Below are positions 898-62,491 of a stretch of 64,000 bases of DNA, piece by piece. The position numbers and the translations under genes were made by a program. The first letter of the stretch is position 1. Every line of letters begins with the position of its first letter. Below the pieces are notes generated by a model, which was not told the DNA's origin, searched no databases, and was given only the letters and a program-made list of their open reading frames with translations. The DNA is from Dokdonia sinensis (lineage in GTDB: Bacteria > Bacteroidota > Bacteroidia > Flavobacteriales > Flavobacteriaceae). Where the stretch lies: contig NZ_REFV01000015.1 of the NCBI RefSeq assembly GCF_003688895.1, positions 1 to 64,000 on the forward strand. Direction: 5' to 3'.

Positions 898-910
898 TTT
901 CGCGAAAGCG
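898..910. repeat. Iterated palindrome, half copy (TTTCGCGAAAGCG)
   Basis: Intergenic copy of the window-wide palindrome with intact core TTTCGCGAAA and right arm; the left arm is lost. It lies downstream of pnp, beside its terminator. Confidence 0.9.
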
Positions 911-916
911 AAACAC

Positions 917-950
917 AAAAAAATCGGCTACCCAATAAAGGATAGCCGAT
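917..950 (-). terminator. Rho-independent terminator downstream of pnp
   Basis: On the minus strand ATCGGCTA and TAGCCGAT form a stem that TCC/GGG can extend, followed by a run of seven T. It lies 87 bp past the pnp stop. Confidence 0.75.
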
Positions 951-1036
951 TCTCAGGATATCTAAGAGCAAGCTTTTAAAAGCTCACATTTATCATCTCA
1001 AATCTTAAAAAGATCCTGATCTACATCAGGAAAGTT

Positions 1037-3262
1037 TTAATCTCTCTTACGATCATCACGTCTGTTATCGCGACCTCCGCCACGATTATCACGACCACCA
1101 CGATCATTGCTGCGCTCTCTAGGAGCAGGAGCTTTATAGCCTTCTGGCTTTTCCATAAGCGCCTTACGAGATACTTTCTCTTTGCGAGTACGCTTGTCTA
1201 TACCGAAGTATTTTACCTCAAGTTCCTCACCCATAGAAAGTACGTCAGAAGCATTTTCTGTGCGTTCCCAAGCAAGCTCAGATACGTGTAGTAATACTTC
1301 ATTTCCTGGAGCGTCCAGATATTCGACCACCGCACCAAAATCAAGCATCTTAATGACCTTAACCTTATAGGTGTCTCCTACAACTGGTTTAAAGGTAATA
1401 GAGTCTATTTTTGCAAGTACTGCGTCTATTCCTGCTTGTCCTGTTCCTAAAATTTCTACAACACCTTCTTCAGTTACTGGATCCTCGTTTATAACGATAG
1501 TGGTTCCAGTTTCTTTTTGGAGCTCTTGTATCACTTTTCCGCCAGGTCCTATTAATGCACCTATGTACTCATTTGCAATACGTACAGAAACCATTTTTGG
1601 AGCATATTCTTTTACATCTGCCCTTGGAGTGGCGATGGTATCCGTAAGCTTAGTCAGGATGTGTAAACGACCATCTCTTGCTTGCTTTAATGCAGCAACG
1701 AGAATCTCATAAGAAAGACCTTTTACTTTAATATCCATCTGACAGGCGGTAATACCGTCTGCCGTTCCAGTTACTTTAAAGTCCATATCTCCTAAGTGAT
1801 CTTCATCTCCTAAGATATCAGAAAGTACTGCATACTTTCCAGTGTTACCGTCAGAAATAAGTCCCATCGCAATACCAGAAACTGGCTTAATCATTTGTAT
1901 ACCAGCATCCATCATCGCCATGGTTCCAGCACAAACTGTTGCCATAGAAGAAGAACCGTTAGACTCTAGTACTTCAGAAACTACACGTACTGTGTATGGG
2001 CAATCATCTGGTACCATTCCTTTAAGACCACGCTGTGCAAGATTACCGTGACCTACCTCACGACGTGAAGTCCCACGGATGGGTCTTGCTTCTCCTGTAC
2101 AAAAAGGAGGGAAGTTATAGTGTAAGTAAAAACGCTCTTCACCTTCGTGAGATGGCATATCTATTTGATTTGCATCTCTAGATGTTCCTAGAGTTACCGT
2201 AGCTAGTGCTTGAGTCTCCCCACGTGAGAAAATTGCAGATCCGTGCACAGATGGTAAATAATCTATCTCACACCAGATGTCACGTACCTCGTCAGTCTTA
2301 CGACCGTCCAGACGTAAGCCTTCATTTACAGTAAGGTCACGTACCGCAGCTTTCTCAGCCTTACGGTAGTAATCAGAAACTAAATCGCCAAATTCTTCCA
2401 GCTCTTCTTCTGTAAAAGAAGCTTTTACTTCTTCTTTAATAGCCGCAAATGCAGCACTACGCTCGTGCTTAGATGATCCAGCTTTTGCAACAGCATACAC
2501 CTTATCATAAGCCATATCGTGCACTTTTTTTACAAGCTCCTCATTATCTACTGGCTCTTCGTACTCACGTACTTCTTTTCTTCCAAAAGCGTCTGCAAGA
2601 CGGTGTTGCGCGTCTATCTGTACTTTAATAGCTTCGTGAGCAAATTTGATAGCCTCTACCATTTCTTCTTCAGAAATCTCGTCCATCTCACCTTCTACCA
2701 TCATCACAGAGTCTGCAGAGGCTCCTATAATCATATCGATGTCAGACTCTGCAAGCTGTGCTCTTGTAGGGTTGATTATAAACTCACCGTTTACACGTCC
2801 TACTCTCGCTTCTGAGATTGCACACTCAAAAGGGAAATCTGATAACTGTATAGCCGCAGATGCAGCAAGACCTGCCATTGCATCTGGCATAACATCATCA
2901 TCGTGAGACATTAATTGGATCATTACCTGCGTCTCTGCGCTGTAATTTTTTGGGAACAATGGGCGTAATACACGATCCACAAGACGCATCGTCAGTACCT
3001 CACCGTCAGACGGGCGCGCTTCTCTTTTAAAGAAACCACCAGGGTAACGACCTGCTGCTGCAAACTTCTCACGGTAATCTACCGTGAGCGGTAAAAAGGG
3101 TAAGTCTTTTTGTTCATAGTTAGAAACTACTGTACAAAGTAGCATACACTTTCCAGACTGTACAACTACAGATCCGTGTGCTTGCTTTGCAAGTTTTCCT
3201 GTTTCGATAGAGATTTCTCTACCATCGCCAAGGTCGATGACCTCTTTGTAAACTTTTGGCAT
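1037..3262 (-). CDS. pnp: Polyribonucleotide nucleotidyltransferase (PNPase)
   Basis: PNPase is a phosphorolytic 3'-5' exoribonuclease that degrades RNA to nucleoside diphosphates as a cytoplasmic trimer. Two RNase PH-type domains flank a helical domain. The second contains the catalytic region [18 protein letters not shown] domain ([16 protein letters not shown]) and an S1 domain ([20 protein letters not shown]) follow, then an Arg/Gly/Asp-rich tail ([17 protein letters not shown]) likely to contact RNA. I start at [12 protein letters not shown], giving 741 residues. The open frame extends 21 codons upstream, but that stretch is encoded by a dispersed hairpin repeat and is unlikely to be translated. 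rpsO lies upstream in the same orientation, the usual rpsO-pnp pairing, here separated by about 580 bp. Confidence 0.95.
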
Positions 3263-3284
3263 CATAAAATAAATGTTTTTGTCT

Positions 3285-3302
3285 TTCCCGTGAAGACGGG
3301 AA
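3285..3302. repeat. Dispersed hairpin repeat (TTCCCG...CGGGAA)
   Basis: Inverted repeat TTCCCG / CGGGAA around TGAAGA, 23 bp upstream of the chosen pnp start. It belongs to the hairpin family seen ahead of several genes in this window. Confidence 0.7.
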
Positions 3303-3567
3303 TCTCCTTGCTTAAGAAGAATCATAATAGTTATAATCCCGCTTTCGCAAAAAATGTTAATTCATCGAACACCCTTCGTGGGCATTCACTTGTGTCGTTG
3401 TGTTGTAGTTGTAGTTGATGTACTTTTTAAAAAGTACGGGTGATTAAGGGGTAGTTACTTCCCAGAATCGGACACCAATGAAAAACTAGCTGTTTAAGCT
3501 TTCTTTGTCTGACCTCGACTAGGCTCGGCCGCCAAACTTGTATGTTAATCCTATATAACTCTCGATG

Positions 3568-3585
3568 CCTGAGCGTAGTCGAAGG
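3568..3585. repeat. Dispersed repeat, CTGAGCGTAGTCGAAGG type
   Basis: CCTGAGCGTAGTCGAAGG matches, in reverse complement, the copy at 34975-34994 and resembles the ends of the GIY-YIG element at 32478-32862. Confidence 0.7.
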
Positions 3586-3783
3586 CGGAGATGTTATTTT
3601 GCCTTGCGGCAAAAAACTGTTTCTATTCCAAAGTTCTAATCATCATTGATAATAAGAAATTTTAAGTATCTACAGTTTTTAATCCGTTCTAAATATATTT
3701 TAGCAAAAGCGTAATTAAGAACATCAGTATTTCAAAAAAAATATCAAGAATATCACAATTTTGTCGCTTACTCTTGAGTGGGA

Positions 3784-3801: not shown

Positions 3802-3811
3802 TAGACAAAAG

Positions 3812-3839: not shown

Positions 3840-3845
3840 AATAAT

Positions 3846-4176: not shown

Positions 4177-4208
4177 CATTTTTGTTTTTAATATAACACC
4201 TCAAAATA

Positions 4209-5184: not shown

Positions 5185-5202
5185 ACGCTTTCGCGAAAGC
5201 GT
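5185..5202. repeat. Iterated palindrome, full 18-bp copy
   Basis: Perfect ACGCTTTCGCGAAAGCGT, intergenic between gldA and the pheA leader. Confidence 0.95.
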
Positions 5203-6259: not shown

Positions 6260-7410
6260 GTATTAAACCAGCACATCGCCTCGCCGAAACAAAGGAATAC
6301 TACTTCTCGAGAAAACTCAAAGAAGTACGTGCCCTCGTGGCAGACGGACACCCTGTAATAAATATGGGAATAGGAAGCCCAGATTTGCCAGCACCACCAG
6401 CGGTGACTACGGCCTTGTTACAAGGAATGCAGGATAAAGTAGCACATCAATATCAGAGTTACACGGGTATTCCAGCATTACGGGAAGCAATAGCAGCATT
6501 TTATAAAAAACAATATAACGTAAGTACAGACCCTGCCACCGAAATTCTCCCGCTTATGGGTTCTAAAGAAGGGATTATGCACATCAGTATGGCGTTTCTA
6601 AACCCTGGTGATAAAGTCTTGATTCCTAATCCTGGTTATCCCACATATAGTGCTGTAACAAAACTTGTAGAGGCCATTCCCGTTACCTACGATCTCGATG
6701 CGAGCAATGCGTGGATGCCAGATTTAAAAGCGCTTGCTCAACAGGATCTTAGTGATGTAAAAATTATGTGGGTAAACTATCCTCATATGCCCACGGGAGC
6801 AACTGCAGTAAAGGGATTGTTTGAGGATTTGATATCTTTCGCGAAAGCGCAATCCATACTAGTAATAAACGATAACCCTTATAGCTTTATCCTTAATGAA
6901 GAGCCACGTTCTATTTTAGATATAGACGGAGCCAAAGAAGTAGCACTCGAACTCAATAGCTTGAGTAAAACCTTCAATATGGCGGGCTGGCGTGTAGGAA
7001 TGGTGCTGGGAAGTGCAGAAAATATAAATCATATTCTCAAAGTAAAGTCCAATATGGACAGCGGGATGTTCTACGGTATACAAAAAGGAGCCATTGCGGC
7101 ATTGGGATTAGGAATAGATTGGTTTGAACATATCAATAAAATATACAATCGTCGCAGAGAAGCTATTTATAAACTCGCCGAAACCCTGAACTGCACCTTT
7201 GATAAAAGTGCTGTAGGAATGTTTGTTTGGGCAAAGCTACCCGCGGGAATTGATGCCGAAGATTTCATAGATAAGGTGCTTCTCGAGAAATATATCTTCA
7301 TCACCCCAGGAACAATTTTTGGGAGTCAGGGAGAAGGATATATTCGATTTAGTTTATGTGTGGAAGAAGAAGAGATTGAGGAAGCGATTAGAAGATTAGA
7401 CGATGAGTAG
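6256..7410 (+). CDS. PLP aminotransferase of the Phe/Tyr operon (class I/II)
   Basis: A 384-residue fold-type I aminotransferase. The PLP-binding Lys238 is in SLSKTFNMAGWR and the phosphate-binding Arg follows in GWRVG. Its position between pheA and tyrA suggests it transaminates phenylpyruvate and 4-hydroxyphenylpyruvate (or prephenate). Aspartate aminotransferase activity is possible, and substrate cannot be read from sequence. The N-terminus AHRLAETKEYYFSRKLKEV is typical of the flavobacterial subgroup. It overlaps pheA by 4 bp. A copy of the palindrome is read in frame as SFAKAQ at about residues 195-200. Confidence 0.85.
   Translation: MSIKPAHRLAETKEYYFSRKLKEVRALVADGHPVINMGIGSPDLPAPPAVTTALLQGMQDKVAHQYQSYTGIPALREAIAAFYKKQYNVSTDPATEILPLMGSKEGIMHISMAFLNPGDKVLIPNPGYPTYSAVTKLVEAIPVTYDLDASNAWMPDLKALAQQDLSDVKIMWVNYPHMPTGATAVKGLFEDLISFAKAQSILVINDNPYSFILNEEPRSILDIDGAKEVALELNSLSKTFNMAGWRVGMVLGSAENINHILKVKSNMDSGMFYGIQKGAIAALGLGIDWFEHINKIYNRRREAIYKLAETLNCTFDKSAVGMFVWAKLPAGIDAEDFIDKVLLEKYIFITPGTIFGSQGEGYIRFSLCVEEEEIEEAIRRLDDE
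6836..6849. repeat. Iterated palindrome inside aminotransferase gene
   Basis: CTTTCGCGAAAGCG with intact core, translated as SFAKAQ on the coding strand. Confidence 0.9.
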
Positions 7411-9771: not shown

Positions 9772-11082
9772 CTAGATATATTGATTCATAATATTCTCAA
9801 ATAGTTCTTGCTTTCCACTTTTTCGATCAATTGCACCTTGACCATTAGCTATTTTATAAAGTTCTTCGAGGCTGAGGTTTCCGTTTTCAAAAGCCTTTCC
9901 ATCTCCGCTGTCAAAGGAAGAGTAACGCTCTTCTCTCATCTTTGTGTAATTTGAAGTAGAAATGATTTTATCTGCAATTAATAGTGCTCTTGCAAAAACA
10001 TCTGCACCGCCTATATGCGCATAAAATATATCTTCAAGATCTGTAGAATTTCGGCGGATTTTTGCGTCAAAGTTCACGCCACCACCCTGCAATCCTCCAG
10101 ATTGTAAGATGACGAGCATCGCCTGAGTCACTTCCCCAATATTATTCGGAAATTGATCCGTATCCCAGCCATTCTGGTAATCACCGCGGTTTGCATCTAT
10201 GCTTCCCAGCATTCCAGCATTTGCCGCCACCTGAAGCTCGTGCTCAAAGGTATGGCTGGCAAGCGTCGCGTGGTTTACCTCCACATTCATTTTAAAATCT
10301 TTATCAAGTCCATACTCTCGCAGAAAACCTATTGCAGTAGCAGCGTCAAAATCATACTGATGCTTCATAGGCTCCATAGGCTTCGGCTCTATAAAAAATG
10401 TTCCCTTAAAACCCTGTGATCGCGCATAATCTCTGGCTTTGGTGAGAAACATTCCCATATGGTCCAGCTCGCGTTTCATATCTGTATTGAGAAGGCTCAT
10501 ATATCCTTCTCGACCTCCCCAAAAGACATAGTTCTCTCCACTCAGAGCAATCGTTGCGTCAAGTGCATTTTTAACTTGGCCGGCGGCGTGAGCCACCACT
10601 TTAAAATCAGGATTGGTCGCCGCACCATTCATATAGCGAGGGTGGGAGAAGCAGTTTGCAGTTCCCCATAAGAGTTTGATGCCCGTGTCCTTCTGTTTTT
10701 GCTTATGATAATCTACAATAGTGTGTAGGCGTTTTTCGCTTTCGCGAAAGCTATCTCCCTCAGCAACAAGATCAAAATCGTGAAAGCAATAATAGTCAAA
10801 TCCCATCTTGCTTATGAACTCAAAAGCCGCATCTGCCTTAGCTCTCGCCGCGTCCAAAGGATCTGATGGTCTATCCCAAGCAAATTGTTGCGTGCCAGGT
10901 CCAAAGGGATCTGCGCCCTGACCGCAGAAGGTATGCCAGTATGCGATGGCAAACTTAAAATGCTCGCGCATCGTCTTTCCTGCGACAACTTGCTCGGGAT
11001 TATAATATTTAAAAGCCAAAGGGTTATCGGATTCCTTTCCCTCAAATTGGATTTTGGAGATGTTTTTAAAATAAGTTTCCAT
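9772..11082 (-). CDS. xylA: Xylose isomerase
   Basis: Interconverts D-xylose and D-xylulose with two divalent metals. Diagnostic blocks are FHDFDL (catalytic His/Asp), [34 protein letters not shown] and [16 protein letters not shown]. At 436 residues from METYFKN it has normal length; the frame is open 16 codons farther upstream but that part overlaps xylB. Its ATG overlaps the xylB stop as TAATG, so xylB-xylA is a coupled operon. A palindrome copy inside the gene is read as DSFRESE. No transporter or XylR-type regulator adjoins, so uptake must be encoded elsewhere. Confidence 0.96.
10738..10751. repeat. Iterated palindrome inside xylA
   Basis: GCTTTCGCGAAAGC, read in frame as SFRES within [13 protein letters not shown]. 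Confidence 0.92.
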
Positions 11083-12581
11083 TAAATGTTGGTTTTTAGT
11101 TTTTGAATTGCCTCTAGGGCATTTTTCCATTTGGAGTAGGCTTCGTGATAGGTGGCACCTTCTTGATCTGGAGAAAAAGTTGCTACCCTATCTTTTTCTA
11201 TAATTTGTTGGAGCGTTTTGAAATCTCCCGTTGCAAGACCCGCACATCGGGCCGCACCCGTTGCTCCATTTGTTTCGTAGATTTCTATAGGCTGTTTGAG
11301 CAATGTGGCTAGGGTAGTAGGAAGTACGCTTGCGCGAAACAAGTTGTCATTCCCTGCCCGAATCACTTTTGCGCTAACTCCATCATTTTTGAGAATTTCC
11401 ATTCCGTAAGCGTAGGAGAAAGCCAGTCCTTCTAATGCTGCTCTGAAAAAATGCGCCCTAGTATGGATGTTAAGGTTGAGGTTTAAAATGTGGGCACCTA
11501 TGTTTTGATTATTGAAAATACGCTCTGCTCCATTGCCGAAAGGAAGTATGATTAACCCATCTGAACCTACGGGCACTTTTTCTGTCAGTTCATTCATTTC
11601 TTCATATCCATCTTCACTTACTTTAAAATTGTCTTTAAGCCAGCGATACAATATCCCAACGGAGTTGAGGCAAAGTAGCTTCCCAATGCGTGGTTTTTCT
11701 CTGGAGTGATTTACGTGAGCAAAGTTATTAATGCGCGTTCCCTCTTGTGTGTCCATACTGTCGGTCACCGCATAGAGAACGCCGGAGGTCCCACCGGTGG
11801 CAGCAATTTCACCAGGTTCCAAAACGTTAAGAGCCATTGCATTGTTGGGCTGGTCGCCAGCTCTGTAAACGATAGGCGTATTTTCGGTGAGGCCAGAGGA
11901 TCTTGCTCCTTCTTTGTTTACAGTGCATTGATGTCCTAAAGATGGAGTGATCGAGGATAATACATTTTCCTCAAAACCAAAATGCTCCATAAGCATTGTA
12001 GAAACTTCGTCTTTTTTAAAATCCCAGAAAACCCCTTCGGAGAGTCCAGATTTTGTAGTGGTTGTTTCTCCCGAAAGACGGTAAGCGAGATAATCGCCGG
12101 GGAGCATTATCTTATGAATTTGAGCAAATTTTTTAGGTTCGTTATCTTTTATCCATTTTAGTTTTGAGGCTGTGAGGTTTGCAGGGGAATTCAACAGAGA
12201 GTTTAAGGATCTTGTCGAGCCCATTTTCGCGAAAGCGGAATCCCCTATATCTACCGCACGACTATCGCACCAAATAATTGCTGGTCGTACGATATTGCCA
12301 CTCTTGTCTATAGTTACAAGTCCGTGCATTTGGTAAGCGATACCTATTCCCTTAATATCTTTAGGGACAATAGTCTTTTCCTTGAAGAGCCGTTTAGTGG
12401 CTATGCACAGGTTGTTATACCACAACTCTGGATCTTGCTCTGCCCATTCCGGTTGCGGGGTTTGAAACTCCATTTCGGTGGCGGGCTCTTGTGTAGTTGC
12501 GATATTCATTCCAGTACCAGCATCTATCAAAGATACTTTGAGGGAGGAAGTTCCTAAATCGTAACCTATATAGTATTTCAT
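11082..12581 (-). CDS. xylB: Xylulokinase (FGGY family)
   Basis: Phosphorylates D-xylulose to xylulose 5-phosphate. The N-terminal actin-like phosphate loop [15 protein letters not shown], the substrate block WCDSRA and the C-terminal ATP-binding [11 protein letters not shown] place it in the FGGY carbohydrate kinases; adjacency to xylA indicates xylulose. I start at [10 protein letters not shown] (499 residues); the frame begins six codons earlier. A palindrome copy is read as SAFAKMGS, and a degenerate one lies at about 11328. It is the first gene of the two-gene operon and is divergent from rsgA with 71 bp between. Confidence 0.93.
12225..12238. repeat. Iterated palindrome inside xylB
   Basis: TTTCGCGAAAGCGG (left arm degenerate), read as AFAK. 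Confidence 0.88.
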
Positions 12582-12628
12582 TAATGGTTTTGGTTTCAAT
12601 AAAGCTACTAATAATCCATTAAAGATTC

Positions 12629-13606: not shown

Positions 13607-14058
13607 TGAAAGCAGTCATTCAAAGAGTTTCTAAGGCCTCTGTCACTATAGATGGAAATGTAAATGGAGCCATTGATCAAGGTCTGTTAGTATTACTGGG
13701 AATTTCAAATGACGATTCCGCAGAGGATATCGAGTGGCTTACGAATAAACTTATCGGCCTCCGTATTTTTAGTGATCACGAGGGGGCAATGAATCTTTCG
13801 GTGATGGATGTAGATGGAGATATTCTTGTGATTTCTCAGTTTACATTGCACGCAAGTACTAAAAAAGGCAATCGTCCCAGCTTCCTGAACGCTGCAAAGC
13901 CCGATGTTGCCATTCCTTTATATGAGGAATTTTTGAGTACGCTTTCGCGAAAGCGTAACAAATCCATTCCCTCTGGTATCTTCGGGGCAGATATGAAGGT
14001 GGAGCTACTCAATGATGGGCCGGTGACTATCATTATTGATACGTTAAATCGTGCCTGA
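13606..14058 (+). CDS. dtd: D-aminoacyl-tRNA deacylase
   Basis: Removes D-amino acids (and glycine mischarged on tRNA-Ala) from tRNA. The active-site block SQFTLHAST and the Gly-cis-Pro motif in NDGPVTIIID are present, giving the normal 150 residues. It starts at the overlap with rsgA. A full 18-bp palindrome copy is translated as TLSRKRNK at about residues 112-119, where family members have an ordinary variable linker before SGIFGADMKV, so the insertion was tolerated. Confidence 0.95.
   Translation: MKAVIQRVSKASVTIDGNVNGAIDQGLLVLLGISNDDSAEDIEWLTNKLIGLRIFSDHEGAMNLSVMDVDGDILVISQFTLHASTKKGNRPSFLNAAKPDVAIPLYEEFLSTLSRKRNKSIPSGIFGADMKVELLNDGPVTIIIDTLNRA
13939..13956. repeat. Iterated palindrome, full copy inside dtd
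   Basis: Perfect ACGCTTTCGCGAAAGCGT, read in the LSRKR frame. Confidence 0.95.
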
Positions 14059-19802: not shown

Positions 19803-19820
19803 ACGCTTTCGCGAAAGCGT
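19803..19820. repeat. Iterated palindrome, full copy in queA 5' region
   Basis: Perfect ACGCTTTCGCGAAAGCGT between the predicted queA promoter and its start codon, so it would be transcribed as a stable hairpin. Confidence 0.95.
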
Positions 19821-20966: not shown

Positions 20967-20980
20967 ACGCTTTCGCGAAA
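20967..20980. repeat. Iterated palindrome, half copy
   Basis: ACGCTTTCGCGAAA with the right arm eroded, directly after the queA terminator. Confidence 0.88.
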
Positions 20981-25129: not shown

Positions 25130-25147
25130 ACGCTTTCGCGAAAGCGT
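25130..25147. repeat. Iterated palindrome, full copy
   Basis: Perfect ACGCTTTCGCGAAAGCGT in the 210-bp spacer between the PAP2 gene and the S8 protease. Confidence 0.95.
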
Positions 25148-34813: not shown

Positions 34814-34816
34814 TTT

Positions 34817-34845
34817 TGTCATCTCCGCGCAGGCGGTGATCTCAT
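34817..34845. repeat. Dispersed hairpin repeat at the kmo start
   Basis: TGTCATCTCCGCGCAGGCGG followed by TGATCTCAT. Its TGTCAT contains the upstream in-frame ATG of kmo. Confidence 0.7.
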
Positions 34846-35821: not shown

Positions 35822-37093
35822 TTAATTGTATTTCAATATTTTCTTTAATCGTTCTACCATCTCAAATACATCCTCATAACTATTATACAATGGCGCAGGA
35901 GCAACTCTAATCACATCTGGCTCACGCCAGTCTGAAATTACTCCGGCTTTTGTGAGTTTATCGTGTAACGATCTGTCTGCGTTTTTTACTTGAATAGACA
36001 GCTGACAGCCGCGTTGTTTTGGGTCGCTTGGGGTGATGATTTTTATATCATCATTATTCAAGTCATTGATTAAAAACTCTAAATACCCAGTCAGTTTTTC
36101 AGATTTTGCGCGTATGTTTTTCATTCCCGCTTCCGCGAAAATGTCTAAACTAGCACGCACGGCCGCCATACTCAGTATAGGCGGGTTTGATAGTTGCCAA
36201 CCTTCTGCCGTCGGGATTGGGTCAAAGCCTTTGCGCATATTAAAACGCGTGTCTTTATTCTGTCCCCACCAGCCTGTAAATCGCTGAATGTTTTTGTCTT
36301 TGTGATGGCGCTCGTGTACAAAGCAACCGCCCAGACTTCCTGGGCCACTATTCAAATATTTATAAGTACACCATACTGCAAAGTCAGGTCCATTATCGTG
36401 CAAGTCTGGCATTATGTTTCCCACGCCGTGGGCGAGGTCAAAACCTACTTTGCTGCCGTTTTTATGACCGAGTGCTGTAATTTCTTTGACGGGATAAAAC
36501 TGTCCTGAGTAGTAATTTGTATTTCCTATAAGCAAAAGGGCTACGCTGTCACCGTGCTCATTTACAAGCGCTTCCAGATCTTCAAGTCTACAGAGTTCTT
36601 CGCCCGCTCTGGGTTGCCAGAGGAGTAAACTATCGCTCGGGTCGTACCCTCGTTGTCTAATCTGACTTTCTACTGCATACTTGTCTGACGGGAAGGCGTC
36701 ACTTTCTATGATGATTTTATGCCGGTCTGGTGTTGGGTTGTAAAAGGAGACCATCATCAGGTGCAAGTTGGTCGTGAGCGTATTCATAATGACCACTTCG
36801 CTGGGTTTTGCACCTACGATATCTGCCATAGGTTTTGCCAGTTTCTCGTGATACGGCATCCACGGGTTTTCTGCGTCAAAATGGCCTTCTACTCCCAGAT
36901 CTGCCCAATCATTCAGCTCTTGCTCGATGTAACTGGCGACTGATTTTGGCTGGCAGCCCAAGCTGTTTCCGCATAAATAGATAAGCTCATTGTTGTCGCT
37001 ATCTACTGGAATATAAAACCGATTTCTAAAGCTAGAAAGTGGGTCTTTTTCGTCTTGCGCTTTCGCGAAAGCGTAATTGTTTTCAAACTTCAT
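35822..37093 (-). CDS. kynU: Kynureninase
   Basis: PLP enzyme cleaving kynurenine or 3-hydroxykynurenine to (3-hydroxy)anthranilate and alanine. The PLP lysine is in CTYKYLNSGPGSLGG (about 244). Upstream are GNSLGCQPKSVASYIEQEL, MNTLTTNLHLMMVSFY and VGFDLAHGVGNI. The 423-residue length is typical. It is probably the first gene of the kynurenine run. A full palindrome copy near the N-terminus is read as YAFAKAQDEKDPL, only about 8 residues from the start. Confidence 0.95.
   Translation of the reverse strand: MKFENNYAFAKAQDEKDPLSSFRNRFYIPVDSDNNELIYLCGNSLGCQPKSVASYIEQELNDWADLGVEGHFDAENPWMPYHEKLAKPMADIVGAKPSEVVIMNTLTTNLHLMMVSFYNPTPDRHKIIIESDAFPSDKYAVESQIRQRGYDPSDSLLLWQPRAGEELCRLEDLEALVNEHGDSVALLLIGNTNYYSGQFYPVKEITALGHKNGSKVGFDLAHGVGNIMPDLHDNGPDFAVWCTYKYLNSGPGSLGGCFVHERHHKDKNIQRFTGWWGQNKDTRFNMRKGFDPIPTAEGWQLSNPPILSMAAVRASLDIFAEAGMKNIRAKSEKLTGYLEFLINDLNNDDIKIITPSDPKQRGCQLSIQVKNADRSLHDKLTKAGVISDWREPDVIRVAPAPLYNSYEDVFEMVERLKKILKYN
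37057..37074. repeat. Iterated palindrome inside kynU
   Basis: GCGCTTTCGCGAAAGCGT, read as AFAKAQ just after the start codon. Confidence 0.95.
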
Positions 37094-40516: not shown

Positions 40517-41677
40517 CTATTTGGCTAGGCGCAATCCTGTAAATTGCCAGCGCAGTCCTGTCTGGAAGAAATTGCGATAGGTGTGACGCGTATGTTTGTC
40601 TGATGTTGCTACTGAGCCACCGCGTAGAACTTTCTGGTTGACCATAAATTTACCGTTGTATTCTCCCAAGGCACCTTCTTCTTTCATATAGCCAGGGTAG
40701 GGTAGGTAGGCACTTTCTGTCCATTCCCATCGCTCACCCCAATTAAATTTTTTATTTGCGATTTCCCACTCAAATTCGGTGGGGAGTCTTAATCCCTTCC
40801 ATTGGGCATAAGCAAATGCTTCGAAGTACGATATGTGTGATACTGGAGCGTCTTGGTCTATTTTACCCAGTCCTTTTTCTAGAGTATATTGATACCACTC
40901 ATTATCTACAAGATGCCAATACATTGGTGCTTTAATGCCATTTGCATTTACCCAGTCCCAACCTTCGGCGTGCCAGAGGAGTGTTTTATTATATCCACCA
41001 TCATTTATAAAGTCTATCCACTCGGCATTTGTGACTAGATTATTAGAAATAGAATACTCGTGTGTATAAACTTTGTGTTGGCTTAACTCGTTATCATAAC
41101 AGAAATCTGTGCCTGAGTGGCCTATGATATAAACTCCCTCCGGAATATGAATCCATTGTTGTGCGTTTTTTACGCTTTCGCGAAAGCGTAACCCACCTCC
41201 ATATTCAGGCATTAATGGATTGTTGCCCAAAATATACTTTATATCTGTAATGAGCAATTCTTGATGCTGTTTCTCGTGATGAATACCGATGGTCACGAGT
41301 TTTTCTATCTCTGGTGTGATTTCTTTTTCTAATACTTCCAGTAACGCATTTGTAACATACGCACGATAGGCATATACTTGAGCCACGGTAGGTCGGGATA
41401 GATTGCCGCGGTCTGTGCGCACTACGCGCTTTCCCACGCTCTCGTAATAGCTGTTAAAAACAAACGCAAAATCATCGCTAAAAAGCTTATAGCCTTTCTG
41501 ATTTTTTAAAATAAATTCTTCAAAAAACCAGGTAGTGTGCCCTAGATGCCATTTGGGCGGAGAAACATCTACAATAGGCTGTACCACATAATCTTCAATT
41601 TGTAGGGGTTTACAAATGGTTTTGGTATGTGTCCGAGTTTCAAGAAAAAAATCCAATAACGTTTGGGTAGCGATCAT
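40517..41677 (-). CDS. egtB: Ergothioneine sulfoxide synthase EgtB
   Basis: Non-haem iron enzyme that joins hercynine to a thiol donor (gamma-glutamylcysteine or cysteine, depending on subtype) with O2. An N-terminal DinB-like domain supplies the iron ligands: HLGH at 44-47 and HHEKQHQE at 133-140. A C-terminal formylglycine-generating-enzyme-like domain (about 175-386) ends RHTYRNFFQTGLRWQFTGLR. Length 386 is normal. No egtA, egtC or egtE is in the window. A full palindrome copy is read as LRFRESV at the domain junction. Confidence 0.92.
   Translation of the reverse strand: MIATQTLLDFFLETRTHTKTICKPLQIEDYVVQPIVDVSPPKWHLGHTTWFFEEFILKNQKGYKLFSDDFAFVFNSYYESVGKRVVRTDRGNLSRPTVAQVYAYRAYVTNALLEVLEKEITPEIEKLVTIGIHHEKQHQELLITDIKYILGNNPLMPEYGGGLRFRESVKNAQQWIHIPEGVYIIGHSGTDFCYDNELSQHKVYTHEYSISNNLVTNAEWIDFINDGGYNKTLLWHAEGWDWVNANGIKAPMYWHLVDNEWYQYTLEKGLGKIDQDAPVSHISYFEAFAYAQWKGLRLPTEFEWEIANKKFNWGERWEWTESAYLPYPGYMKEEGALGEYNGKFMVNQKVLRGGSVATSDKHTRHTYRNFFQTGLRWQFTGLRLAK
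41172..41189. repeat. Iterated palindrome, full copy inside egtB
   Basis: Perfect ACGCTTTCGCGAAAGCGT, read in the RFRES frame at the junction of the two domains. Confidence 0.95.
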
Positions 41678-41722: not shown

Positions 41723-41740
41723 ACGCTTTCGCGAAAGCGT
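41723..41740. repeat. Iterated palindrome, full copy
   Basis: Perfect ACGCTTTCGCGAAAGCGT, intergenic upstream of egtB and only 534 bp from the copy inside egtB. Confidence 0.95.
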
Positions 41741-44718: not shown

Positions 44719-44735
44719 CGCTTTCGCGAAAGCGT
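44719..44735. repeat. Iterated palindrome, near-full copy
   Basis: CGCTTTCGCGAAAGCGT, intergenic between the CNT transporter and the CarboxypepD_reg-like gene. Confidence 0.95.
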
Positions 44736-46995: not shown

Positions 46996-47961
46996 TTAAC
47001 TATTGGCTGCTTTAAAAGCTTTTAGTTTCTCATTAAGCTTCGGTACAATTTCAAAGGCATCACCTACAATTCCATAGTCTGCTGCCTTAAAGAAAGGTGC
47101 TTCTGGGTCGTTGTTAATTACCACTTTAGTTTTTGAAGAGTTAATCCCTGCAAGGTGTTGTATGGCTCCAGAGATTCCAATTGCGATATACAGATTTGCC
47201 GCTACGGGCTTTCCTGTTTGTCCTACGTGTTCTCCGTGAGGTCTCCATCCTAGGTCAGAAACTGGCTTAGAACAAGCGGTTGCTGCTCCGAGGATATCTG
47301 CCATTTCTTCTATCATTTCCCAGTTCTCAGGTCCTTTGAGACCACGACCTGCAGAAACAACAATCTCGGCATCTGCAATAGCAACTTTATCTGTTGCTTT
47401 GTCTATAGATTGTACTTTTACTCCAGAGGTGTCCCCTAAATCTACTGCGAAATCTTCGGTTGCTGCGGCTCCTGATGTTTCATTAAGGCCAAAAGCGTTC
47501 TTTCCTAATCCTACGATTTTCACATCGGTTGTAATCTCGGTATTACTGAAGGCTTTATTTGTAAATGCTGTGCGCTTTACCACAAATGGACTTGTACTTT
47601 CTGGTAATCCTACCACGTTAGATGCATAACCTGCTTCAAGTTCTATCGCGAGTAGGGGAGCGATGTATTTTGCATTTGCACTTTGGCTCAATACAATGAC
47701 CTTTGCTCCTTCGGCTTTTGCTGCTTGGGCAATCGCTTTCGCGAAAGCGGACGCATTAAAATCTCCCAACGCATCATTTGTTATATTAAGAACTTTATCT
47801 ATTCCGTGTGCGCCTAGTGAGATCGTGTCTCCGCCATTTATGGCAACTGCCGTAGCGGTAGTTCCCATCATATCTGCAATTCCCTTTGCGTAGCTGGCTA
47901 CCTCGAGGGCGGTCTTTTTATAAGTACCGTTTTCTGATTCTGTATATACTAAAACTGACAT
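46996..47961 (-). CDS. etfA: Electron transfer flavoprotein subunit alpha
   Basis: FAD-binding subunit that accepts electrons from acyl-CoA and other dehydrogenases and passes them to ETF-quinone oxidoreductase. The C-terminal FAD domain is clear: [65 protein letters not shown] and [20 protein letters not shown]. It follows etfB with a 124-bp spacer containing GAGTTCAGAGTT-like repeat sequence. A palindrome copy is read as [12 protein letters not shown] at about residue 72. Confidence 0.95.
47734..47749. repeat. Iterated palindrome inside etfA
   Basis: CGCTTTCGCGAAAGCG, read as AFAKAIAQ. Confidence 0.95.
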
Positions 47962-50201: not shown

Positions 50202-50218
50202 CGCTTTCGCGAAAGCGG
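50201..50218. repeat. Iterated palindrome overlapping the pdhB stop
   Basis: ACGCTTTCGCGAAAGCGG begins with the A of the TAA stop codon. Confidence 0.95.
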
Positions 50219-54295: not shown

Positions 54296-54309
54296 TTTCG
54301 CGAAAGCGT
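54296..54309. repeat. Iterated palindrome, half copy
   Basis: TTTCGCGAAAGCGT; the left arm is degenerate. Lies in the predicted ppa leader. Confidence 0.88.
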
Positions 54310-55073: not shown

Positions 55074-57467
55074 ATGGAATCAATAATGATCTACGTGCCT
55101 ATCGCGCTGGCATTACTAGGGCTTATCTATATGCTCGTAAAACAATCTTGGGTAATGAAACAAGATGCCGGAGACGGTAAAATGAAAGAAATTTCAGATC
55201 ACATCTACGAAGGCGCACTCGCTTTCCTTAATGCCGAATATAAATTACTGACCATTTTTGTGGTCATCGTGAGTGTCTTGCTCGCCATAGTATCATTTGT
55301 AGTACCTACTACACACTGGCTCATAGTTATTGCTTTTATATGTGGTGCTGCATTTTCTGCATTTGCAGGAAATATTGGGATGAAGATAGCAACTAAAACA
55401 AATGTACGTACTACGCAAGCAGCGCGTACGAGTTTGCCTAAGGCACTTGGTATCTCTTTTGGTGGAGGTACTGTGATGGGGCTGGGTGTTGCAGGACTTG
55501 CAGTATTAGGACTTACAGCATTCTTTATATTTTTCTTTCACTTCTTTATGGGAGGTGTGTGGACAAACACAATGGATATGACCATAGTACTTGAAACACT
55601 AGCTGGTTTCTCGCTAGGTGCAGAGAGTATAGCACTTTTTGCAAGAGTAGGTGGAGGAATCTATACTAAGGCGGCAGACGTAGGCGCAGATCTTGTGGGT
55701 AAAGTTGAGGCTGGTATTCCAGAAGATGATCCACGTAACCCTGCAACGATTGCAGATAATGTGGGAGATAACGTAGGAGATGTTGCGGGAATGGGAGCAG
55801 ATTTATTTGGTTCCTATGTGGCAACAGTACTCGCGGCAATGGTCCTGGGGAACTATGTTATAAAAGATATGGGTGGAAGTATTGCCGACGGTTTTGGAGG
55901 AATAGGACCTATCTTATTGCCTATGTCCATTGCAGGTGTGGGGATTATCATTTCTATTATCGGTACAATGCTGGTAAAAATTAAAAATAACGATGCAAAA
56001 GAATCTCAAGTTATGGGAGCACTTAACATCGGGAACTGGACTTCTATAGTTCTTGTAGCAGTTGCTTGTTTTGGTCTATGTGTGTGGATGCTTCCAGAAA
56101 CAATGCAAATGGAATTCTTTGGAGAAGGGTTACAAGAAATTTCTTCTATGAGAGTATTTTATGCAACACTCGTTGGGCTTGTTGTAGGAGCAGTTATTTC
56201 TTCAGTAACCGAATATTATACGGGATTAGGAAAGAAGCCTATTCTTAAAATTGTACAACAATCAAGCACAGGTGCGGGAACAAATATTATTGCAGGTCTT
56301 GCCACGGGAATGATTTCTACTTTCCCATCGGTTTTACTTTTTGCTGGTGCGATTTGGGCATCGTATGCATTTGCAGGATTTTATGGAGTTGCGCTAGCGG
56401 CTTCGGCGATGATGGCTACTACGGCAATGCAACTTGCGATTGACGCCTTTGGACCTATATCTGACAACGCTGGTGGAATTGCCGAAATGTCTGAGCAAGA
56501 GCCTATCGTACGTGAGCGTACAGATATTCTTGATTCTGTAGGAAACACAACAGCAGCAACTGGAAAAGGATTTGCAATTGCTTCTGCAGCCCTTACTTCG
56601 CTGGCACTTTTTGCGGCTTATGTAACTTTTACAGGAATCGACGGAATTAATATTTTTAAAGCTCCTGTCCTTGCGATGCTCTTTGTAGGAGGTATGGTGC
56701 CCGTTGTTTTCTCTGCACTCGCAATGAATGCGGTAGGAAAAGCAGCAATGGAGATGGTGCAGGAAGTTCGTCGCCAGTTTAGAGACATTCCAGGGATTAT
56801 GGAAGGAACAGGAAAACCAGAATACGATAAGTGTGTGGCGATTTCAACAGAAGCTTCTCTTAAGCAAATGTTGCTTCCTGGTGTATTGACGATTGGTTTT
56901 CCACTCGTGATTGCATTTGTACCGCTTGCTTTTGGGATGAATAATCTTGCCATTGCAGAGATGCTAGGAGGTTATATGGCTGGAGTTACCGTTAGCGGTG
57001 TGCTTTGGGCTATTTTCCAGAATAATGCTGGTGGGGCCTGGGACAACGCAAAGAAATCATTTGAGGCTGGCGTAATGATTAACGGCGAGATGACTTATAA
57101 AGGGTCGGACGCTCACAAGGCGGCCGTAACTGGAGATACGGTAGGAGATCCATTTAAGGATACTTCTGGACCTTCTATGAATATCTTGATAAAGCTTACG
57201 TGCCTTATCGGTCTTGTGATTGCCCCTATATTAGGAGGTCATAGCGATGAGGGTGAGACCGCTTTCGCGAAAGCGGAAATCTCAAAAGAAATACGCGTAG
57301 AGATGAATGCAACTGATGACAACCAGGCAACTGCAGTAGTGACAACGGTTACCACAAAGAATGGAGAATCGACCACAGATGAAAAGGTAATCACAGGCAC
57401 CACCGAAGAAGTGGAAGCCCAAGTGAATGCAATGAAAAATGTAGAGGTAAAGGTGGAAAAGAATTAG
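55074..57467 (+). CDS. hppA: Membrane-bound ion-pumping pyrophosphatase
   Basis: Couples PPi hydrolysis to H+ or Na+ translocation, with about 16 helices. The substrate site is [62 protein letters not shown] has Ala where K+-independent enzymes have Lys, so this is predicted K+-dependent. Whether it pumps Na+ or H+ cannot be settled here; marine flavobacteria often use Na+. After the last helix comes an extra tail of about 65 residues (Thr/Glu/Val-rich) that begins at a palindrome copy, read as [13 protein letters not shown]. Confidence 0.95.
57260..57277. repeat. Iterated palindrome inside hppA
   Basis: Perfect CCGCTTTCGCGAAAGCGG, read as TAFAKAE, exactly where the C-terminal tail begins. 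Confidence 0.95.
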
Positions 57468-60135: not shown

Positions 60136-60138
60136 ATC

Positions 60139-60978
60139 TTAATTTTTTGGTGGTTTGAGGCTAAAAGAAGTCACTTTTAAGCCGTCGTAAATATACAGCC
60201 TTTCACCGTTCAACGAAAGCTGTTTTATGACTAAATCTGGTAATTTCAAAGGAACAAAATCTTCGGCAGAGGATGATTTGTAATATACTTTTGGTTTTAA
60301 ATTTTCAGTTTCCGCTACTTTGGCTTCGCTCAGCACAGATTTTGCGAAAGCGATAACATTCCCATTCGCCTGAGCTAAACTGATATCTGTAGGTATCTTG
60401 CTCAGGTCTATGCTGTCTATGGCACTTCCATAATTATTAAACATAAGTAGGCCACTTTCTGTAACCAGCCAGCAAAAGTTGAAGTTGCTCGTGGTTGCCA
60501 AAGCATTAGTTTGCAACGGTGGGGATTGCACGACCACTTTCCTGCTGTTCCAGTCAAATATTTCTAGCTGTTGCAAGTCTGTATTAAATATCCAAAATCT
60601 CCTGTCGTTTGCCGTGGTCGCGTGACTCACGTTTCTAAAATTCTCAATGGCCGAAAAGTTGATGCGAGTGATTTCAGATAGCGTGTTGTCCAGTACAAGC
60701 GCGGTATTAGACATTTCATAAAACACCGTAATCTTGAGCGGATTCACAATATCTACCGAACTAATTTTCCCCAGCTGTAGCGCCGTAAACTGGTAATTGT
60801 TCTTATCGCCTTTTTTAAAAAGTGCGTTGTTTTTAGAATAATACACCGCTCCATAATCATCCACTCCGTAAAATACTTCGGCATCCAGCGGAGTGCTTTG
60901 TAGTAATTTCGGACTCAATTCTTGAGCAGAAAGTGAGAAGCCTAGGGCTAGAATGAGAAAGAATAGAAAGTTTTTCAT
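60139..60978 (-). CDS. Hypothetical secreted protein
   Basis: A 279-residue exported protein with signal peptide MKNFLFFLILALGFSLSAQ. Regularly spaced beta-strand blocks with repeating phi-D/N turns (PLDAEVFYGVDDYGAVYYSKNNALF, STALVLDNTLSEITRINF, RRFWIFNTDLQQLEIFDW) suggest a beta-propeller-like fold. No enzyme motif is seen. It is probably cotranscribed with the downstream kinase (3-bp gap), a pairing found in flavobacteria. A degenerate palindrome (TTTTGCGAAAGCG) is read as IAFAKSVL. Confidence 0.7.
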   Translation of the reverse strand: MKNFLFFLILALGFSLSAQELSPKLLQSTPLDAEVFYGVDDYGAVYYSKNNALFKKGDKNNYQFTALQLGKISSVDIVNPLKITVFYEMSNTALVLDNTLSEITRINFSAIENFRNVSHATTANDRRFWIFNTDLQQLEIFDWNSRKVVVQSPPLQTNALATTSNFNFCWLVTESGLLMFNNYGSAIDSIDLSKIPTDISLAQANGNVIAFAKSVLSEAKVAETENLKPKVYYKSSSAEDFVPLKLPDLVIKQLSLNGERLYIYDGLKVTSFSLKPPKN

Positions 60979-61028
60979 CGGCTAGCAAAGTACAAAAACC
61001 TCGCCGTTTTATATGTTATATTTACGAT

Positions 61029-61421: not shown

Positions 61422-61483
61422 GAATTTAGAATGACATTGTATTTGTCGAGAATACATCTTTGCAGAATCCTTATCTTTAAATT

Positions 61484-61660
61484 ATGGAAGTAACTTTTAC
61501 CACAAAAGAAGAAAGTAACAAACTGCAAGAGAAAGCTTTTCTTGCGTTGTCTCCGTCTGAGCGTTTTCTAGCATTTTTAAATTTAAGTATCGCCATACAA
61601 AGATTGCATCCTACAGAATTTGATCCAAAAGAAAATTTTGTTCTCAAGAAGAAGAAGTGA
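61484..61660 (+). CDS. Small conserved-type protein (58 residues)
   Basis: A 58-codon frame encodes MEVTFTTKEESNKLQEKAFL, then ALSPSERFLAFLNLSIAIQR and a Lys-rich tail (FVLKKKK). The N-terminal SNKxQxxAFLALSPxERF pattern resembles small proteins often found directly before nucleotidyltransferase genes in flavobacteria (from memory, unverified). A TATCTTTA box lies 4 bp before the ATG. Its frame stays open after the TGA stop (next entry). Confidence 0.55.
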   Translation: MEVTFTTKEESNKLQEKAFLALSPSERFLAFLNLSIAIQRLHPTEFDPKENFVLKKKK

Positions 61661-61717
61661 AAGCGCAAAAATTTATTAGACATTCAAGAATTGGAAAGAA
61701 GAAAAGCGCAGGAGTAA
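61661..61717 (+). pseudogene. In-frame remnant after the small gene (nucleotidyltransferase tail?)
   Basis: After the TGA at 61658-61660 the same frame continues KRKNLLDIQELERRKAQE and stops. That resembles the C-terminal end of small nucleotidyltransferases (LLDIxxLExRK), suggesting that a downstream gene was deleted leaving only its tail. Read-through is an alternative but unlikely. Confidence 0.35.
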
Positions 61718-61720
61718 GTT

Positions 61721-61770
61721 TTAGTCCTACGTCCTAGGTCAAGCAAGCGTAGCGCGCTAAGTCCTAAGTC
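61721..61770. repeat. GGACGTAGGACT-type repeat, third copy
   Basis: TTAGTCCTACGTCCTAGGTC followed by GCTAAGTCCTAAGTCA. Related to 57538-57720 and fused to a half palindrome at its end. Confidence 0.65.
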
Positions 61771-61773
61771 ATT

Positions 61774-61787
61774 TTTCGCGAAAGCGG
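61774..61787. repeat. Iterated palindrome, half copy
   Basis: TTTCGCGAAAGCGG, just downstream of the response regulator stop. Confidence 0.88.
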
Positions 61788-61795
61788 AAAAAAAA

Positions 61796-62491
61796 TCAAC
61801 AAATCAATTTATACCCATAGCCTCTCACATTTACAATTGAGACATTCGGGTCATTACTCAATTTCTTGCGGAGTTTTGTGATAAAAACATCCATACTCCG
61901 GCCGGAGAAAAAGTCATCATCTCCCCATAACTTTTTGAGTATAAGAGAGCGATCGAGTACTTGATTTTTGTTTTTGACTAAGTGAAACAAGAGATGTGCC
62001 TCGCGGTGAGTGAGATTTTGTTCTTCTTGTGATTCGTTTCCGCTTTCGCGAAAGCGTAAAATCTGCCGAGGAAAGTCAAAACGATAATCTCCTATTTCCA
62101 GCACCTCACTTTCTCGCTGAAGTTTTGTGCGTCCCAATAAATTATGAATCCTCACAATAAGCTCCTCAACGCTAAAAGGTTTTTTCATATAATCATTCCC
62201 GCCTATGGAGAATCCCTCAACAACATCTGCGGTTTGGGATTTTGCGGTGAGGAAAATGATTGGGATTTCTTCGTTTGTTTCTCTAATTTTTTTGGCAAGG
62301 GTAAATCCGTCCATTTTTGGCATCATTACATCGAGTACGAGGATAGCAAACTCACCATTGTTGAATTTCTCCAAAGCTTGCGCTCCATCTTTACAAAGCG
62401 TCACGTCAAAATCACGAGTTTCAAGACTTTCTTGGACGATTTGACCAAGTGCTGGCTCATCCTCGGCGAGGAGTAGTTTTATTTTAGACAT
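61796..62491 (-). CDS. OmpR-family response regulator
   Basis: A 231-residue DNA-binding response regulator. The receiver domain (1-118) has acidic pocket AEDE, phospho-acceptor Asp in LVLDVMMPKMDG (about 54) and the Lys in KKPFSVEEL. The winged helix (about 135-231) ends NVRGYGYKLIC. It is the cognate partner of the overlapping histidine kinase and resembles the RprY group of Bacteroidota. A palindrome copy in the interdomain linker is read as LRFRESGNE. Confidence 0.93.
   Translation of the reverse strand: MSKIKLLLAEDEPALGQIVQESLETRDFDVTLCKDGAQALEKFNNGEFAILVLDVMMPKMDGFTLAKKIRETNEEIPIIFLTAKSQTADVVEGFSIGGNDYMKKPFSVEELIVRIHNLLGRTKLQRESEVLEIGDYRFDFPRQILRFRESGNESQEEQNLTHREAHLLFHLVKNKNQVLDRSLILKKLWGDDDFFSGRSMDVFITKLRKKLSNDPNVSIVNVRGYGYKLIC
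62041..62057. repeat. Iterated palindrome inside response regulator gene
   Basis: CGCTTTCGCGAAAGCGT, read in the RFRES frame between receiver and DNA-binding domains. Confidence 0.95.

What the first reader, a model, noticed from the sequence alone, without database searches (positions are those of the whole stretch)
898..62057. Highly iterated 18-bp palindrome ACGCTTTCGCGAAAGCGT (23 copies in 64 kb)
The core TTTCGCGAAA occurs at 23 places: 898, 5185, 6836, 10738, 12225, 13939, 19803, 20967, 25130, 27235, 30362, 32312, 33484, 37057, 41172, 41723, 44719, 47734, 50201, 54296, 57260, 61774 and 62041. A random 10-mer is expected about 0.06 times in 64 kb. Most copies extend to 14-18 bp of perfect dyad symmetry, and arms erode before the core does. 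Further decayed copies occur near 3345, 3703, 11328, 35110, 36127, 48848, 58426 and 60341. The density (one per 2.8 kb) recalls the HIP1 palindrome of cyanobacteria, DNA-uptake sequences or nucleoid-protein sites, but the sequence is unlike any I know with a defined role.
Basis: partly seen in the sequence, partly recalled or inferred. Interest (0 to 1): 0.87.

Follow-up and report, generated by a model that had tools for sequence, protein, structure and literature searches.

The report
Genome-wide self-mark palindrome of marine Flavobacteriaceae
A 14-letter DNA palindrome recurs about every 3,000 letters, nearly perfectly spelled and evenly spaced, through the chromosomes of some marine bacteria, which makes it a candidate "self" label for DNA exchange of a kind well known in only two other bacterial families.

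Summary
The unit is GCTTTCGCGAAAGC within ~66 bp whose 3' flank on each strand is poor in G. All 18 genomes searched of the genus (Dokdonia, inferred), 3 of 3 Nonlabens (inferred) and one genome of a third genus carry 369-905 copies; the other 391 of 397 family genomes carry 0-19. Sites are evenly spaced, enriched between genes, conserved far above background, change by substitution, and 0 of 6 aligned sites are shared between Dokdonia and Nonlabens. In several motif-poor genera copies cluster in stretches, some with metal-efflux genes; there copies with a damaged core are commoner (28 of 110) than in motif-rich genomes (32 of 371), so upkeep seems to depend on the host. The closest likeness is a DNA uptake sequence (Haemophilus USS, Neisseria DUS); I rate that about 0.45. 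No reader protein was found, the type IV pilus ATPase is missing from 5 of 8 motif-rich genomes tested, and uptake was not measured. Rivals: a chromosome-organising site or a palindromic Chi equivalent.

The parts
898..907 (.). core TTTCGCGAAA, right arm only (GCG), intergenic by rough ORFs
5185..5202 (.). full 18-mer palindrome (core 5189-5198), intergenic
6837..6846 (.). core, right arm only, inside ORF 6256-7410
10738..10751 (.). 14-mer palindrome (core 10740-10749), inside ORF 9772-11130
12225..12234 (.). core, right arm only, inside xylulokinase-like ORF 11082-12599
13939..13956 (.). full 18-mer (core 13943-13952), inside ORF 13606-14058
19803..19820 (.). full 18-mer (core 19807-19816), intergenic
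20971..20980 (.). core, left arm only (ACGC), intergenic
25130..25147 (.). full 18-mer (core 25134-25143), intergenic
27236..27249 (.). 14-mer palindrome (core 27238-27247), inside ORF 26923-27564
30362..30379 (.). full 18-mer (core 30366-30375), inside ORF 29910-30689
32313..32328 (.). 16-mer palindrome (core 32316-32325), inside ORF 30972-32465
33484..33497 (.). 14-mer palindrome (core 33486-33495), inside ORF 33413-34822 (FAD monooxygenase-like, best below-cut-off hit VioC)
37058..37073 (.). 16-mer palindrome (core 37061-37070), inside kynureninase ORF 35822-37093
41172..41189 (.). full 18-mer (core 41176-41185), inside ORF 40517-41677
41723..41740 (.). full 18-mer (core 41727-41736), intergenic
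44719..44734 (.). 16-mer palindrome (core 44722-44731), intergenic
47734..47749 (.). 16-mer palindrome (core 47737-47746), inside ORF 46996-47961
50202..50217 (.). 16-mer palindrome (core 50205-50214), just downstream of ORF 49224-50201
54296..54305 (.). core, right arm only (GCGT), intergenic
57260..57275 (.). 16-mer palindrome (core 57263-57272), inside membrane pyrophosphatase ORF 55074-57467
61774..61783 (.). core, right arm only, intergenic
62041..62056 (.). 16-mer palindrome (core 62044-62053), inside ORF 61796-62491
35107..35122 (.). probable decayed copy, 3 mismatches to the 16-mer
36128..36143 (.). probable decayed copy, 3 mismatches to the 16-mer
60337..60352 (.). probable decayed copy, 3 mismatches to the 16-mer

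Best explanation
The palindrome is a genome-wide self-recognition site that works like a DNA uptake sequence. A trans-acting reader, present in Dokdonia, Nonlabens and at least one further genus and lacking (or lacking this specificity) in their relatives, binds GCTTTCGCGAAAGC plus about 28 bp of G-poor (per strand, 3') flank on each side and so favours entry and recombination of DNA that carries it. Repeated uptake of fragments a few kb long converts sequence towards perfect sites, fills long gaps, gives no advantage to a second site close by, and repairs decaying copies. SHOWN here: abundance, near-perfect spelling, wide context, even spacing, differences between relatives by substitution, strong conservation, patchy spread, and more damaged cores in stretches that now lie in motif-poor genera.
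For: Even spacing: gap CV 0.54 against 0.91 for random placement, lowest of 2,000 simulations 0.71; 4-9 cores per 20-kb block over 23 blocks of a complete genome, index of dispersion 0.26; repeated in the first 349 kb of own contig 1 (1 of 99 gaps under 900 bp against 22.5) and the first 377 kb of G120 (3 of 99 against 21.1); E. coli Chi is clumped instead (CV 1.60). Near-perfect spelling: in 524 kb 162 exact 14-mers, 7 with one mismatch, 25 with two (15 of these one arm short, core intact). Substitution: for example an aligned GGDISRKRKL stretch (translated by eye) in which only synonymous differences separate a Dokdonia site from the siteless Nonlabens sequence. Maintenance: at 70-75% alignment identity 50 of 124 site rows conserved against 2.0% of other 14-mers; at 85-90% 12 of 13 against 21%. 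Host dependence: one-mismatch copies 28 of 110 in stretches within motif-poor genera against 30 of 369 in motif-rich DNA, p 7e-6; copies with one or two mismatches that damage the core 28 of 110 against 32 of 371, p 1e-5. Between genes 81 of 180 against 13.6 expected, in-gene copies favouring one frame, AFAKA 46 of 99. Two Nonlabens phages: 0 cores in 71 kb. Flavobacteriaceae transform naturally with genes unlike known machinery (PMC8459023, abstract, passages, sections 19-20) and Riemerella columbina prefers its own DNA with no uptake sequence established (PMC7965970, passages and section 16).
Against: No uptake or competence assay was possible, and the 15 papers listed of 928 show none on competence of Dokdonia or Nonlabens. 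The pilus ATPase family PF00437 passes its cut-off in only 3 of 15 genomes tested (3 of 8 motif-rich, 0 of 7 motif-poor), so the classical machine is absent from 5 of 8 motif-rich ones. The Riemerella surface candidate DUF5689 is over cut-off in all 18 genomes tested, motif-poor ones included, and its poorly supported tree mixes rich and poor genera. At least one genuine phage contig carries the site at near-host density, which uptake alone does not predict. USS and DUS are not palindromes (recalled), and a strand-asymmetric G-poor flank is not a feature of them that I know. PMC1939737 (passage) holds that uptake sequences are less evenly spaced than compaction sites should be; strong evenness here could equally fit a chromosome organiser. 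The decay contrast weakens if every one- and two-mismatch copy is counted (41 of 123 against 102 of 441, p 0.026), and in single motif-rich subsets it is not significant (PNPase blocks p 0.08, Nonlabens p 0.12, G207 p 1.0; others p 4e-7 and 0.007).
Confidence: 0.45

Rival explanations
1. A chromosome-organising or replication/repair site read by a cytoplasmic DNA-binding protein (HIP1-like in being an unexplained genome-wide palindrome): the protein binds about 1,000 evenly spaced sites and folds or segregates the chromosome.
For: Even spacing and uniform density along the chromosome; a palindrome fits a dimeric intracellular protein; apparent host-dependent upkeep; a phage contig also carries sites.
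Against: No cognate protein found (none of the searches was aimed at nucleoid proteins); close motif-poor relatives live without it; expansions of the same letters in distant genera need the same protein to arise or move more than once, unless many lineages lost it.
Confidence: 0.25
2. A palindromic Chi equivalent: an AddAB-type helicase-nuclease stops degrading and loads RecA at the site; the palindrome makes it active from both directions, and the G/T-rich 5' flank on each strand is where RecA would load.
For: Density (one per 3.3 kb) resembles Chi; flanks are C-poor and G-rich 5' and G-poor and C-rich 3' on each strand, a strand-specific signal that a dsDNA-binding site need not have (RecA's liking for G/T-rich DNA is recalled, from no call).
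Against: E. coli Chi is clumped (CV 1.60, per-10-kb dispersion 1.91) and is a short non-palindrome; RecC (PF04257) is absent from 18 of 18 genomes tested; AddAB was not tested; intergenic enrichment.
Confidence: 0.13
3. A methyltransferase or restriction site, avoided or favoured through TCGCGA.
For: The core contains TCGCGA.
Against: TCGCGA outside the sites occurs 11 times in the window, near its base-composition expectation of about 9 (worked out by hand from the base counts); a 14-bp recognition plus 28-bp flanks is beyond known methylases (recalled). Methylation data were not available and no methylase family was searched.
Confidence: 0.05
4. A small mobile palindrome (REP, MITE-like) that spread by insertion.
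For: Hundreds of near-identical copies, enriched between genes.
Against: Of 16 rows with the site lost, none is a clean insertion and several ungapped coding ones are substitutions; some gapped rows are unclear; even spacing; flanks carry a composition bias, not a repeat.
Confidence: 0.04
5. Transcription terminators or regulator operators.
For: Hairpin-forming, enriched between genes.
Against: 99 of 180 are inside genes; present in convergent, co-directional and divergent gaps; the 3' flank is A/C-rich rather than a T run.
Confidence: 0.04

Closest known systems
Uptake signal sequence (USS) of Pasteurellaceae / DNA uptake sequence (DUS) of Neisseriaceae
   Same: 1,465-2,206 or 1,892 copies there (PMC7811141 passage) against 1,107 here; even spacing (Karlin et al., as cited in PMC1939737); evolution by point mutation and contributing flanks (PMC7811141 passages); in and between genes.
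   Different: Palindrome; longer and stricter (14 bp); strand-asymmetric G-poor flanks; 5 of 8 motif-rich genomes tested lack the pilus ATPase; uptake preference untested.
HIP1 (GCGATCGC) of cyanobacteria (recalled)
   Same: Highly iterated palindrome of unknown role in a clade.
   Different: 14 bp with ~66-bp context, evenly spaced, in a few genera of Flavobacteriaceae, enriched between genes.
Chi sites (E. coli GCTGGTGG)
   Same: Similar density; possible strand-specific flank.
   Different: Evenly spaced rather than clumped; palindromic; no RecC.
Nucleoid-occlusion / chromosome-domain sites (Noc, SlmA, matS; recalled)
   Same: Palindromic protein-binding sites on the chromosome.
   Different: Many more copies, and uniform over the 23 blocks sampled.

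Membership tests
USS/DUS uptake sequence | Genome-wide, far above chance | tested here: met
   1,107 vs 15 reversed; 18 of 18 genus genomes
USS/DUS uptake sequence | Even spacing | tested here: met
USS/DUS uptake sequence | Evolves by point mutation and is maintained | tested here: met
USS/DUS uptake sequence | Preferential uptake of DNA carrying it | not testable with these tools
   needs a competent culture
USS/DUS uptake sequence | Type IV pilus uptake machine in the hosts | tested here: not met
   PF00437 over cut-off in 3 of 8 motif-rich genomes (G121, G126, G258), not in G000, G120, G122, G010, G207
HIP1 | Octamer GCGATCGC in cyanobacteria (recalled) | tested here: not met
   different sequence; related genomes are Flavobacteriaceae
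Chi | Recognised by RecBCD or AddAB | tested here: inconclusive
   RecC absent, 0 of 18; AddAB not tested
REP/MITE mobile palindrome | Arises by insertion | tested here: not met
   16 lost rows of 94, none a clean insertion; several gapped rows unclear
Intrinsic terminator | T run after the hairpin, at gene ends | tested here: not met
Methylase-linked palindrome | Cognate methylase and modification | not tested
   no modification data; methylase families not searched

The most novel reading that the evidence does not exclude
This is the first short-motif DNA uptake sequence outside Pasteurellaceae and Neisseriaceae and the first palindromic one, read by a pilus-independent Flavobacteriaceae transformation machine, whose identical 14 letters rose to genome-wide abundance separately in at least three genera, so that Dokdonia, Nonlabens and a third genus can share one DNA-exchange dialect.
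Probability: 0.35. Interest if true: 0.93.

Novelty: new variant of a known kind. Interest (0 to 1): 0.8.

Why it matters
Preference for short sequence motifs in DNA uptake is described for two families (PMC7811141, introduction passage). A third, independent and palindromic case in marine bacteria would show how such drives start, would give a handle on how Bacteroidota tell self from foreign DNA, and could ease genetic work on Dokdonia and Nonlabens (put the 14-mer on the transforming DNA). If the site instead organises the chromosome, it is a dense, evenly spaced system with natural 'without' cases in sister genera. One pull-down and one competition assay would largely decide it.

Tried and rejected
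Literature: no paper in the open library holds TTTCGCGAAAGC; 10 hold TTTCGCGAAA, all unrelated by title; 'highly iterated palindrom' with Bacteroidetes 0; Nonlabens or Dokdonia with 'palindrom' 7 and 5, none on this by title; all seen as listings. Only open-licence papers are held, so absence in print is not proven.

oriC/ter or strand trend: none seen in 23 blocks. The orientation-specific 16-mer TTTCGCGAAAGCGTAA is balanced in four of five genomes (185/201, 269/283, 47/45, 55/52); the third genus has 9 forward and 18 reverse in runs along the chromosome, too few to build on. Longer hairpin: flank complementarity is not above expectation in Dokdonia; in Nonlabens some positions are, but 44 of the 48 loci used there were picked for the 22-mer. 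A reader from the Riemerella screen (DUF5689): over cut-off in 18 of 18, its tree (6 of 15 inner branches well supported) mixes rich and poor. RecC: 0 of 18. Another palindromic 12-mer in motif-poor relatives: none repeated in 20-40 kb each of g77, g55, g74. Sharing by position between Dokdonia and Nonlabens: 0 of 6, a small number.

Weak points: rough ORF calls overstate coding fraction; conservation counts use both directions of each pair and related species, so they are not independent; one core of 181 near a block end was dropped (180 used); the tree is one gene, and PNPase of the window's own genome groups with motif-poor g77 and g55, so exchange may blur it; a single gain with many losses is not excluded. 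In the decay test the stretches in motif-poor genera were picked because they hold exact 14-mers, which works against finding decay; the loci were picked for the 22-mer and their 115 selected copies were taken out; five further G120/G000 loci sets (L001-L004, L228-L232) were not counted. Genus names are inferred: titles are Dokdonia and Nonlabens, contig length 1,129,740 links G258 to Nonlabens xylanidelens and contig length 850,193 links G135, of the window's genus, to an uncultured Dokdonia; the third genus is unnamed.


Full report
WHAT IS THERE. The window holds 23 copies of TTTCGCGAAA, 17 of them as GCTTTCGCGAAAGC, 14 as the 16-mer and 7 as the full 18-mer. Expected by Markov models: 0.06-0.27. 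The genome in which it lies (3,647,482 bases, 43 contigs) has 1,107 cores against 15 for the sequence read backwards, 857 14-mers against 0 and 202 18-mers against 0.

SPREAD. The 14-mer occurs 369-905 times in each of 18 of 18 genomes of the genus. In a draw of 397 genomes of the family (237 genera) six genomes stand out: two of the own genus (857, 903), three of g11 (578, 664, 609) and one of g191 (408); the other 391 have 0-19. In a draw of 395 genomes of the phylum none outside the family has more than 1. Contig lengths tie g11 to Nonlabens (G258) and the own genus to Dokdonia (G135).

SEPARATE EXPANSIONS. In a PNPase tree of 29 rows Nonlabens is split from all others with 100/100 support and g191 pairs with motif-poor g43 (97/96), while motif-poor g77, g55 and g74 lie next to Dokdonia. 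PNPase identity to the window is 91 and 86% for two g77 genomes, 88% for g55, 76% for g191, 73% for Nonlabens. Of six aligned Dokdonia-Nonlabens sites none is shared by position (two further rows, Nonlabens against the unassigned MAG, are shared). So the same letters rose separately, or were lost many times. One gene, one small set: suggestive, not settled.

ANATOMY. In 524 kb of Dokdonia (window plus 23 blocks of the complete genome G120) there are 127 exact 16-mers, 37 with one mismatch (33 in the outermost C), 9 with two and 21 with three, the last largely one arm missing; thirty control palindromes average 0, 0, 0.03 and 0.97. For the 14-mer: 162 exact, 7 with one mismatch, 25 with two, of which 15 keep the core. 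Beyond the palindrome the 3' side of each strand is poor in G (0.01-0.14 per position from +5 to +28, genome 0.19), with A and C raised nearer the core; this ends near +28. It holds inside genes (G 0.103) and between genes (0.078), and in Nonlabens. The two flanks are not more complementary than chance in Dokdonia.

PLACEMENT. 81 of 180 cores lie between genes against 13.6 expected from a generous ORF call; 99 are in genes, 50 of them in one frame (AFAKA 46 of 99); sites occur in convergent, co-directional and divergent gaps. Spacing is even: CV 0.54 against 0.91, 3 gaps under 500 bp against 26; in the first 349 kb of own contig 1, 1 of 99 gaps under 900 bp against 22.5, CV 0.59; in the first 377 kb of G120 3 of 99 against 21.1, CV 0.74 with two gaps near 17 kb. 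Those two gaps hold ORFs of 4,431 and 5,060 codons. E. coli Chi in 200 kb (55 sites) is clumped, CV 1.60; a control 7-mer in Dokdonia is random, 0.93. No trend along the chromosome in 23 blocks.

EVOLUTION. Within Dokdonia, aligned sites are kept far beyond background 14-mers: 2 of 9 against 1.7% at 65-70% identity, 50 of 124 against 2.0% at 70-75%, 30 of 48 against 4.5% at 75-80%, 12 of 21 against 11% at 80-85%, 12 of 13 against 21% at 85-90%, 26 of 27 against 47% at 90-95%, 4 of 4 against 65% above (pairs counted both ways). Four 20-kb blocks round PNPase in motif-poor g77 (2), g55 and g74 have no core; 13 Dokdonia blocks there (12 of 20 kb, one of 12.8 kb) have 3-8. Differences are substitutions in ungapped rows; no clean empty site was seen among 16 lost rows of 94.

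A NATURAL TEST OF HOST DEPENDENCE. In several motif-poor genera the few copies are clustered: in G076 all 16 lie in one 78-kb stretch, in G303 18 of 19 in two stretches, in G353 7 of 8 on one contig. Not all are: G345 has 6 scattered and G161 9 mostly scattered. Eight proteins scanned from four such stretches (L115, L116, L118, L119) are seven metal-efflux-type proteins (RND pumps, outer-membrane and fusion proteins, P-type ATPases) and one Fur-family regulator; G076 and G303 share the 933- and 2,446-bp site spacings of those stretches, but their genes were not scanned. The stretches align between genera, so transfer is likely. In 550 kb from 11 motif-poor genomes there are 82 exact and 28 one-mismatch 14-mers, against 339 and 30 in the motif-rich sets counted (p 7e-6; window plus G120 alone, 162 and 7, p 4e-7; with island copies collapsed to 43 and 18 clusters, p 1e-5). 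Counting one- and two-mismatch copies whose core is hit: 28 of 110 against 32 of 371, p 1e-5; counting every one- and two-mismatch copy, which at home are mostly one arm short with the core intact: 41 of 123 against 102 of 441, p 0.026. The mismatches away from home include CpG-type transitions in the core. Cores thus seem to decay away from home, as if upkeep were supplied in trans. Caveats: copies are related, mobile DNA may be kept less well at home too, and I found little of the same stretches in the motif-rich DNA held.

VIRUSES. Two Nonlabens phages have 0 cores in 71 kb, where the Nonlabens density (595 in 3.2 Mb) would give about 13. The 16-mer is found in 41 stretches of the viral collection; one of its contigs with terminase, portal, protease and baseplate proteins has 7 cores in three stretches totalling 28 kb.

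MECHANISM. Even spacing, near-perfection, substitution, wide context, patchy spread and host-dependent upkeep are together the pattern of an uptake sequence under biased uptake and recombination (model from PMC1939737 and PMC7811141, passages read). Against it: PF00437 over cut-off in 3 of 15 genomes, no reader, no assay. Flavobacteriaceae do transform with genes unlike the known machinery (PMC8459023, abstract, passages, sections 19-20) and R. columbina prefers its own DNA, with no uptake sequence established (PMC7965970, passages and section 16). A cytoplasmic organiser and a palindromic Chi equivalent stay open; the strand asymmetry of the flanks is better explained by the Chi idea than by uptake.

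VERDICT. Real, large, not found in the open library by the searches listed, and closest in behaviour to USS/DUS without being shown to be one.

Noticed in passing
L115-L124; by shared site spacing also L293-L297 and L301-L304: Stretches with metal-efflux genes (RND pumps, P-type ATPases, CusB-like proteins; scanned in L115, L116, L118, L119) shared between several Flavobacteriaceae genera and bearing the palindrome; site pairs 933 and 2,446 bp apart recur between genera.
   Followed up: partly
L228, L229 (G120:C1:286000-322000): Two neighbouring giant ORFs (4,431 and 5,060 codons) that contain no site, with sites just outside them.
   Followed up: no
L205, L222, L225 (IMGVR_UViG_3300040781_000495): A phage contig with terminase, portal, protease and baseplate proteins that carries the palindrome about every 4 kb.
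   Followed up: partly
L307 (G412:C1:1099779-1109380): Five 14-mers at regular 2.3-2.6-kb steps in a motif-poor genome, possibly a tandem gene repeat.
   Followed up: no
window 1037-3325: PNPase of the window's genome groups with motif-poor g77 and g55 rather than with the other members of its genus: a possible gene exchange or a deep branch.
   Followed up: no
L248, L249, L250: A T2SSE/PilB-like ATPase (PF00437) far over cut-off in only 3 of 15 genomes, all three motif-rich (two Dokdonia, one Nonlabens).
   Followed up: no
L258-L275: DUF5689 surface proteins, linked to transformation in Riemerella, appear by eye to differ in their C-terminal part between close relatives, as if that part were swapped.
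   Followed up: partly
G207:C1: In the third genus the 27 copies of TTTCGCGAAAGCGTAA lie in long runs of one orientation, unlike the balanced counts in Dokdonia.
   Followed up: no
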